64,000 nucleotides of DNA from Allomuricauda sp. (GTDB taxonomy: Bacteria > Bacteroidota > Bacteroidia > Flavobacteriales > Flavobacteriaceae). This document shows, piece by piece, positions 51,207-52,947 of the stretch (position 1 is the first letter of the stretch; each line of letters opens with the position of its first letter). The notes under the pieces are model-generated. The model saw only the letters and a list, made by a program, of their open reading frames with translations, had not been told where the DNA came from and made no database searches. Both the position numbers and the translations under genes were made by a program. The DNA lies in assembly GCA_030148335.1 (NCBI GenBank), contig JASBTQ010000022.1, positions 1 to 64,000 of the forward strand, written 5' to 3'.

Positions 51207-51323
51207 TACCCAACGGGATTCTTTCGTATGGGCCAGAAGAGAGTCAAACCCATCGATGATACCCCAATTGGGGGGTATATGGATGTATTTTACATCTATA
51301 TATACAAGTTACCTGCAAGCTAA

Positions 51324-51965
51324 ATGAAGCGATTTTTTTCTCCCTTTTTCTTTATATCAATCTTAACGCTAATTTCTTGTATTTATATTTTAATTACAGA
51401 TGAAAGCGGGTGGGGATTAGTTGGGGTATTCTATTTGGCCCCAGCAGCTTTAGTAATTCTTTTAATTGACTTTATTCTGAAAAAAGGATTTAATAAGCTT
51501 AAAAAAGTTAATATCATCGAATTAATAGTTGTTGGAATCTTGGTTTTCGCATATTATTACGGAGAGCGAATTAAAACCTTGGAAATATCTGATGATTTTG
51601 ATAAAGAATATGTTTCTATTATTTATGACGTTGAAAATGAAAAAGGACTTTCAATAACTCCATTGACTTGGTCAAAAACTATCGAAATTCCAGAAAATGG
51701 AATTTTATTAACGTCTTCCGGCTTCAATAAAAACCTTCCTGAAACTAGAATGAAATTTCAATCAGGGACCTCTGTAACTATCAAAGAATCTGGAAAAGGA
51801 TTTGTTGAATTTCCGGAATCTCAATTCGAATTCAATGGAAAAGTATATAAGTATAGAAGTTGGAAAATTCAAGAAGGATTTTGTTGTATGTGGTCTAGTA
51901 ATGAATCCGATAGTTTGAATATAGCTCTTAAAGCTGAATTCGAAAAAATAAAAGCCAGCAGGTAA
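51324..51965 (+). CDS. Hypothetical membrane protein (cassette-like ORF 1)
   Basis: Three N-terminal hydrophobic segments; AT-rich codons; stop codon lies inside the putative R'' box. Confidence 0.7.
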   Translation: MKRFFSPFFFISILTLISCIYILITDESGWGLVGVFYLAPAALVILLIDFILKKGFNKLKKVNIIELIVVGILVFAYYYGERIKTLEISDDFDKEYVSIIYDVENEKGLSITPLTWSKTIEIPENGILLTSSGFNKNLPETRMKFQSGTSVTIKESGKGFVEFPESQFEFNGKVYKYRSWKIQEGFCCMWSSNESDSLNIALKAEFEKIKASR

Positions 51966-52092
51966 CACTGGCTATAATTCATTGCTCGCTAAGTGCTAAA
52001 CCAGAAACCAATAACTTTAACCGGCTTGATTCCTACTCTGAAAATCATTCTGATCTTCCTCGCCACGGAATCATAGCCTAAACGTTGTGAGC
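51958..52092 (+). repeat. attC-like site 1
   Basis: GCAGGTAAC / GGCTATAATTC ... GGAATCATAGCC / GTTGTGAGC; imperfect palindrome. Confidence 0.5.
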
Positions 52093-52101
52093 AAGCTAAA
52101 C

Positions 52102-52800
52102 ATGAAAAGAGTTTTAATAATATCGATTTGTTCCTTAGTATGGCTTTGTTCTTGCAAACAAAAAAGTACATCAATAACAGAAAAAGTAGTCATTCAATCG
52201 GAAATAAAAACCACTGCCCATAGTAATAAGAGACAACCATCACAGAATCAGGACTTAGAAAAATACATCTACACGGATACTACATACACCCTCATCAATG
52301 GAAAAATGATTACCATACAAAACAGTTTTCCAAAGGGAGGAATGATTGAACCGGGTAGAACACAATATTCTAACTCAGCTGGGAAATTACATGGATTTGC
52401 AGCCTTTTGGACTCGAATAATAAATGAAACTGATATCCCTTTGGAGCTAAACATAAATATTTCCGCCGATTCATTTTCAATTTTCACTCCACCTGACTCC
52501 TATTTGAAGTTATTTTTGCCTAAAGAAAAAATCTCGGTTAATAAACTTTCAAAATTCAACTATGGCTTAACTGAAATAAAGTCTTATTTAGACGCAAATT
52601 TTGATAATGCCAGCATATTACAAAAAACCATTAATCCTAATGAGGAGTATATTTTTTATGTAATAACATTAACTTATGAAGCTGCTGGAACGCCAAGGGC
52701 TGGACTTATCTTGAAAGAACAAGACCTATACTATAAAATGAGTATAGCGCCTCATGGTTCTGGAATTGTTCCATTTGGCACGATTACTCTAAAAAAATAA
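52102..52800 (+). CDS. Hypothetical lipoprotein (cassette-like ORF 2)
   Basis: MKRVLIISICSLVWLCSCKQKS lipobox; AT-rich codons; start reassigned to 52102. Confidence 0.7.
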   Translation: MKRVLIISICSLVWLCSCKQKSTSITEKVVIQSEIKTTAHSNKRQPSQNQDLEKYIYTDTTYTLINGKMITIQNSFPKGGMIEPGRTQYSNSAGKLHGFAAFWTRIINETDIPLELNINISADSFSIFTPPDSYLKLFLPKEKISVNKLSKFNYGLTEIKSYLDANFDNASILQKTINPNEEYIFYVITLTYEAAGTPRAGLILKEQDLYYKMSIAPHGSGIVPFGTITLKK

Positions 52801-52807
52801 AAAGCCA

Positions 52808-52947
52808 GCTCACAGCAATGGCTATAATTCATTGTTCGCTTCTTCCCTAAACTAAATTCCCTACTTTTAATAAAAGTAAACAACCAAGGGAATGCTTTCG
52901 TCCTACCAACCCCCAGACACCACGAAATCATTGCCGAGACCGTTACC
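52808..52947 (+). repeat. attC-like site 2
   Basis: GCTCACAGC / GGCTATAATTC ... GAAATCATTGCC / GTTACC. Confidence 0.4.

What the first reader, a model, noticed from the sequence alone, without database searches (positions are those of the whole stretch)
51308..52947. Integrase-less gene-cassette array with non-canonical attC-like sites
Seen in sequence: two AT-rich, same-strand single-ORF units lie between GC-richer core genes. Unit 1 opens with GTTACCTGC (51308) and closes with its exact reverse complement GCAGGTAAC (51958). Unit 2 opens with GTTGTGAGC (52084) and closes with the near reverse complement GCTCACAGC (52808). Cassette-specific complementarity between the 5' and 3' ends is the hallmark of integron cassettes, because both ends derive from one circular attC. 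The shared inner boxes also pair: GGCTATAATTC (left) with GGAATCATAGCC (right). ORF1's stop codon sits inside the putative R'' box. The core differs from the canonical GTTRRRY, and no integrase is visible. Inference: a CALIN-like array, possibly served by a divergent recombinase.
Basis: partly seen in the sequence, partly recalled or inferred. Interest (0 to 1): 0.85.

Follow-up and report, generated by a model that had tools for sequence, protein, structure and literature searches.

The report
Hidden gene-cassette integrons of Bacteroidota
Two small genes in this marine flavobacterium are mobile gene cassettes of an integron-like gene-capture system that is widespread in the phylum Bacteroidota, appears to be run by a recombinase lacking the part thought to define integron integrases, and seems to have been missed by standard integron searches.

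Summary
Window 51308-52950 holds two single-gene cassettes, each ending in an attC-like hairpin site (51958-52092, 52808-52950). Covariance models built from relatives find such sites in 60 of 61 genomes of the genus and 124 of 300 Bacteroidota genomes, often in arrays of 6-16 cassettes. Cassette-specific end complementarity holds in 85 of 108 adjacent site pairs (6.9 expected). A duplicated cassette elsewhere is bounded exactly at GTT. Sister species carry different cassettes between the same flanks. Complete loci in relatives have a recombinase gene at the array's 5' end with an attI between (11 of 11); all 157 sites in 80 recombinase loci lie in integron orientation. The recombinases share a well-supported clade with IntI but lack the 42-residue IntI-specific insertion. 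Sites carry AAC/GTT, but only 9 of 150 match GTTRRRY; bottom strands fold better in 47 of 49. The window array sits behind an attI-like core without a recombinase, and the genome's only recognisable recombinase of this type is a truncated relic: a CALIN-like array. Recombination itself is inferred, not shown. No published description was found, but preprints and most subscription papers could not be searched.

The parts
50736..51206 (+). left flank: resident lipoprotein gene, syntenic in sister species G351 and G343
51297..51310 (+). attI-like core TATATATACAA|GTT, left breakpoint of the variable segment; sister species read TATATAAACAA|GTT, the same core as the attI of complete loci L056, L063 and L130
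51308..52083 (+). cassette 1 (from GTT to the next GTT)
51324..51965 (+). ORF1, 213 aa, no Pfam family; no convincing homologue in 72 other genomes of the genus
51958..52092 (+). attC-like site 1: R'' GCAGGTAAC 51958-51966, L'' GGCTATAATTC 51970-51980, L' GGAATCATAGCC 52067-52078, R' GTTGTGAGC 52084-52092 (R' belongs to cassette 2)
   Evidence: CM R1 122.9 bits
52084..52941 (+). cassette 2
52102..52800 (+). ORF2 (ATG 52102; GTG 52087 possible), putative lipoprotein, no Pfam family, scattered homologues in 4 of 72 other genomes of the genus
52808..52950 (+). attC-like site 2 (terminal, decaying): R'' GCTCACAGC 52808-52816 (core AGC), L'' 52820-52830, L' GAAATCATTGCC 52924-52935, R' GTTACCAAT 52942-52950; right half from about 52846 is resident in sister species
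   Evidence: CM R1 64.3 bits
52954..54141 (+). right flank: esterase/TPR gene, syntenic in G351 and G343

Best explanation
The segment is a two-cassette, recombinase-less (CALIN-like) array of an integron-like system of Bacteroidota. SHOWN by sequence: cassettes are single forward ORFs bounded by GTT; each ends in a roughly 135-nt hairpin site with AAC/GTT core boxes, an unpaired spacer, a conserved L-box stem and a variable loop; the six bases after GTT at a cassette's 5' end are complementary to the six bases before AAC at its 3' end; copies of a cassette are identical exactly from GTT to GTT; complete loci put a tyrosine recombinase and an attI at the 5' end of the array; the recombinase is a close relative of IntI without the IntI-specific insertion. 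[quoted passage not shown] The window array was placed at, or left behind at, an attI-like core by such a recombinase acting in trans or since lost; the genome's only recognisable recombinase of this type is a truncated relic on contig C24.
For: Sites recur in arrays and in 60/61 genus genomes. End complementarity: 85/108 adjacent pairs against 6.9 shuffled (maximum 17 in 5000 shuffles), same-site pairs only 9/128. Cassette duplicated in one array with identity starting and ending at GTT. Different cassettes between the same flanks in two sister species, left breakpoint at AACAA|GTT. attI directly beside the recombinase in 11/11 loci. 157/157 sites in 80 recombinase loci are in integron orientation; 35/39 loci with at least 3 kb of flank carry sites. 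Covariation. Bottom strand more stable in 47/49 circular sites, p 1.3e-9, with conserved top-strand A.C positions that become G.T wobbles on the bottom strand in the R box (129/148) and L box (106/148). 91/92 cassette ORFs forward, median site spacing about 600 bp. Tyrosine-recombinase catalytic residues invariant in 45 homologues. Tree: recombinases plus IntI one clade, 100/99. Own-genome relic recombinase next to an attI and a matching cassette start.
Against: No recombination, circle or transposition was observed. No empty (cassette-free) site at the window locus was found; the sister loci are occupied. The terminal site is degenerate (AGC core) and its right half is shared by three species with different upstream cassettes, which simple cassette insertion does not explain. 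The genome is an 84% complete draft, so an intact recombinase may be missing from it. CM E-values are rough, A2 was fitted to its model, and the fold z-scores were computed on sites chosen for complementary ends; the top/bottom comparison does not depend on that choice. 4 of 39 recombinase loci with at least 3 kb of flank had no detected site.
Confidence: 0.87

Rival explanations
1. Degraded complete integron: the window locus is the original platform (attI plus array) whose recombinase gene was deleted, not a secondary insertion. This is a rival only about how the window array came to lack a recombinase, not about what it is.
For: The left junction carries the attI core of the clade-B recombinases, exactly TATATAAACAAGTT in both sister species. 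The own genome holds a truncated recombinase elsewhere, so loss happens.
Against: In complete clade-B loci attI lies 125-143 bp after the recombinase stop; here a syntenic lipoprotein gene ends 102 bp before it in the window and stands at the same place in both sister species.
Confidence: 0.3
2. The cassettes were placed here by a canonical IntI integrase, as an ordinary CALIN.
For: IntI over the NCBIfam cut-off is common elsewhere in the phylum (87/300 genomes) and the sites fold as attC sites do.
Against: No TIGR02249 match over cut-off in the own genome or in 15 relatives, 14 of them with the motif; in the own class only G394. Only 9/150 R' and 7/150 R'' boxes fit the canonical consensus. 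Arrays sit beside the insertion-less recombinase, including in G395 and G471, which also carry an IntI.
Confidence: 0.05
3. Resident genes followed by terminator-like or REP/MITE-like inverted repeats; no cassette behaviour.
For: In the window alone the 9-nt pairings are within chance.
Against: Cassette-specific complementarity between neighbouring sites, exact GTT-to-GTT duplication, replacement in sister species, attI and recombinase linkage.
Confidence: 0.02

Closest known systems
Integrons with IntI-family integrases (class 1, Vibrio superintegron, chromosomal integrons)
   Same: Arrays of single-ORF cassettes, hairpin sites with AAC/GTT core boxes, spacer, L boxes and variable loop, cassette-specific R''/R' complementarity, bottom strand folds better, tyrosine recombinase and attI at the 5' end of the array.
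   Different: Recombinase lacks the IntI-specific insertion (58 vs 100 residues between KGxKxR and HxLRH) and often has an extra N-terminal domain of about 70-100 residues; R box is GTT plus about six free bases, not GTTRRRY; recombinase usually points the same way as the cassettes (41 loci) and less often away from them (10).
CALIN elements (clusters of attC sites lacking an integrase)
   Same: The window locus: attC-like sites, no integrase gene beside them.
   Different: Sites are of the Bacteroidota type; only two, one of them decaying, behind an attI-like core.
attG secondary insertion (Loot et al. 2024, as cited in PMC12901181)
   Same: Cassettes at a chromosomal place away from a recombinase gene.
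   Different: The target here carries the attI core of a recombinase clade found in relatives rather than a divergent non-classical site.
Archaeal XerA and Xer recombinases (NCBIfam NF040815)
   Same: Four of six recombinases tested score over that family's cut-off of 220 bits (228-233; the other two 218 and 204), and they align with XerA without the IntI gap.
   Different: They fall in a clade with IntI to the exclusion of XerA and XerC/D, and sit at cassette arrays.

Membership tests
Integron (functional definition) | Array of attC-type sites separating mostly single, same-strand ORFs | tested here: met
   up to 16 sites in a row, 91/92 ORFs forward
Integron (functional definition) | Cassette-specific complementarity of R' (5' end) and R'' (3' end) | tested here: met
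   85/108 against 6.9 expected
Integron (functional definition) | Canonical core boxes RYYYAAC / GTTRRRY | tested here: not met
   AAC 143/150 and GTT 139/150 present, full consensus in 7 and 9 of 150
Integron (functional definition) | attI beside the recombinase gene, at the 5' end of the array | tested here: met
   11/11 complete loci in relatives
Integron (functional definition) | Folded bottom strand preferred | tested here: inconclusive
   computed stability favours the bottom strand in 47/49; strand use in recombination not testable here
Integron (functional definition) | Cassette excision as a circle and insertion at attI by the recombinase | not testable with these tools
   indirect only: GTT-to-GTT duplication, replacement in sister species
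IntI integrase family | IntI-specific additional domain | tested here: not met
   58 residues (59 in one) in every array recombinase with both motifs found, 100 in IntI
IntI integrase family | NCBIfam TIGR02249 over cut-off | tested here: not met
   193-214 bits against cut-off 265
IntI integrase family | Phylogenetic grouping with IntI rather than Xer | tested here: met
   100/99 clade; nested or sister to IntI unresolved (AU p 0.28)
CALIN (window locus) | At least two attC sites within 4 kb without an integrase gene | tested here: met
   the sites are non-canonical and the second is decaying

The most novel reading that the evidence does not exclude
Much of the class Bacteroidia carries a previously undescribed branch of integrons whose recombinases handle folded cassette sites without the IntI-specific domain, so that domain is not required for integron function and may be a later addition in the IntI line.
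Probability: 0.6. Interest if true: 0.9.

Novelty: new variant of a known kind. Interest (0 to 1): 0.82.

Why it matters
Integron surveys define integrases by the IntI insertion and sites by canonical covariance models, and so report almost none in this class (IntegronFinder 2.0, PMC9024848, names one complete integron in Bacteroidetes, in Salinibacter ruber). If this system works, a main marine and soil phylum has its own gene-capture machinery, its cassette cargo has gone uncounted, and the role of the IntI-specific domain, reported as necessary for activity, becomes directly testable with natural recombinases that lack it.

Tried and rejected
One site-extraction script had a wrong filter and returned nothing (fixed). 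Orthologues of the right-flank esterase at 66-69% identity lie in other contexts, so they give no empty site. No similar site in phages; one weak match on a Persicobacter plasmid. ORF2 homologues in other genomes are mostly not flanked by detectable sites, so they do not by themselves prove cassette mobility of that gene. One weak defence-system match in PADLOC among 85 cassette proteins: no case for a defence archive. Monophyly of array recombinases against all other rows was rejected (AU p 0.0003), but this depends on a few unassigned relatives; IntI as sister to all of them is not rejected. A first column count of the R and L boxes used the wrong columns and was redone. Messier and Roy 2001 is not held and is cited through papers that are.

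Full report
What was claimed.

All motifs are where stated. The units have GC 0.36-0.37 against 0.46-0.50 around them. The second site is completed by L' GAAATCATTGCC (52924) and R' GTTACCAAT (52942). Within the window alone, exact 9-nt end pairings are not beyond chance (2 observed, shuffled mean 0.58, maximum 3), so the case rests on relatives.

Where it lies. The genome belongs to a Flavobacteriaceae genus that includes Muricauda yonaguniensis 334s03: genome G312 of the same genus has a contig of the same length, 132,936 bases, with the identical recombinase, as that strain's scaffold. This identification is an inference from the match.

The motif is a family. The L-box motif occurs in 15 of 301 family genomes including the own one. 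From 29 complete sites a covariance model R1 was built, which found 129 matches in 21 loci, all on the array strand apart from one reverse reading of a site already counted. R1 finds sites in 60 of 61 genomes of the genus and nine in the own genome. A second model, R2, from 150 sites, matches 124 of 300 Bacteroidota genomes at E up to 1e-4. Outside the class some R2 matches may be canonical attC sites.

Cassette logic. For neighbouring sites, the bases after GTT of one and before AAC of the next are complementary at five or six of six positions in 85 of 108 pairs; shuffling gives 6.9 (maximum 17 in 5000), and the two boxes of one site only 9 of 128. That is expected if the two ends of a cassette derive from one site in a circle. 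In genome G136 a cassette occurs twice in one array with near-identical sequence starting at GTT and ending at GTT of its site, while the flanks differ. 91 of 92 cassette ORFs point forward; median spacing between sites is about 600 bp. Cargo is varied: thioredoxin-like, glyoxalase, acetyltransferase, isochorismatase, barstar-like and beta-lactamase-fold proteins and many families of unknown function.

Comparison at the window locus. Two sister species, G351 and G343, have the same genes on both sides at 85-97% nucleotide identity but different cassettes between them; the left match ends at AACAA|GTT. G343's first cassette starts GTTACCTGCAAGCT like the window's but holds another gene. Neither window ORF is in those loci. 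ORF1 has no convincing homologue in 72 other genomes of the genus (one match at E 8.8e-4), ORF2 four scattered ones.

The sites fold. Named pairs are formed in 94.6% of cells, with 319 doubly changed cells against 79 after shuffling, and collapse when columns are slid (the alignment was fitted to the model). Reconstructed circular sites are more stable as bottom strand in 47 of 49. Two positions are A.C on the top strand and so G.T on the bottom: R box 129 of 148, L box 106 of 148. This resembles the strand bias of attC; the strand actually used was not tested.

The recombinase. Complete loci carry a tyrosine recombinase of about 275-390 residues at the 5' end of the array. In 11 of 11 such loci the cassette-1 start predicted from the first site's R'' lies between the recombinase and the array, 45-65 bp after the stop in one clade and 125-143 bp in another, or 115-286 bp from a divergent gene; this is the attI. 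Among 80 named loci found by the recombinase alone, all 157 sites are in integron orientation: 141 downstream on the same strand, 16 upstream on the opposite strand; 35 of 39 loci with at least 3 kb have sites.

Is it IntI? By defining features, no. TIGR02249 scores are 193-214 against a cut-off of 265. The spacing from KGxKxR to HxLRH is 58 residues (59 in one) in every array recombinase where both motifs were found, 100 in IntI, 60-66 in Xer proteins; against IntI4 only 25 residues stand where it has 68. By descent it is close: recombinases plus IntI form a clade (100/99) without XerA or XerC/D. Whether IntI is nested or sister is open (AU p 0.28). The predicted structure (mean pLDDT 82) matches XerA, IntI4 and XerH. 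Canonical IntI is common elsewhere in the phylum but over cut-off in only one genome of the own class in the sample.

The window's own array. Its left junction, TATATATACAA|GTT, and the sisters' TATATAAACAA|GTT match the attI core of recombinase loci L056, L063 and L130, but no recombinase lies there. On contig C24 of the same genome about 40 C-terminal residues of such a recombinase remain, next to GTTGTACTGC, the exact complement of the R'' of the following cassette. So the genome had this system. Whether the window array came by insertion in trans or lost its own recombinase is not settled; the syntenic lipoprotein gene in all three species favours insertion.

Known or not. Papers held define integrases by the additional domain (PMC9668308, PMC2426708) and report one complete integron in Bacteroidetes proper, Salinibacter ruber (PMC9024848). 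PMC8138268 notes that the insertion is not fully conserved in its integron-like subgroup, and a UniRef name for a Zobellia homologue reads 'Integron-related Integrase', so the kinship has been noticed. Ten searches found no description of these arrays, but preprints and most subscription journals are not held.

Noticed in passing
G000:C24 (locus L073) 10992-15236: Truncated recombinase relic, attI and cassette array (Nudix hydrolase, P-type ATPase, others) in the window's own genome, away from the window.
   Followed up: yes
window 52846-52950; L118 and L119: Right half of the terminal site is resident in three species although the cassettes upstream differ; suggests hybrid sites formed within the conserved L'' region. 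Unexplained.
   Followed up: partly
L119 4301-5266 (coordinates of the reverse complement): IS110-type transposase gene inserted inside an attC-like site of sister species G343 (family named from memory of its sequence, not tested).
   Followed up: no
L047, L055, L057, L058, L060 attI regions: A near-perfect palindrome of about 20 bp, different in sequence in each genome, lies just before attI in one recombinase clade.
   Followed up: no
G225 (L055, L056, L057): One genome carries three recombinases of this family, each with its own sites.
   Followed up: no
G395:C33 and G471:C7, against IntI on G395:C10 and G471:C12: Genomes of another class carry both a canonical IntI and an insertion-less recombinase; R2-type sites lie on the contig of the latter.
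   Followed up: partly
L045 9431-9933 and L060 4853-5356: 94% identical cassette in two arrays about 2.5 Mb apart in genome G158.
   Followed up: no
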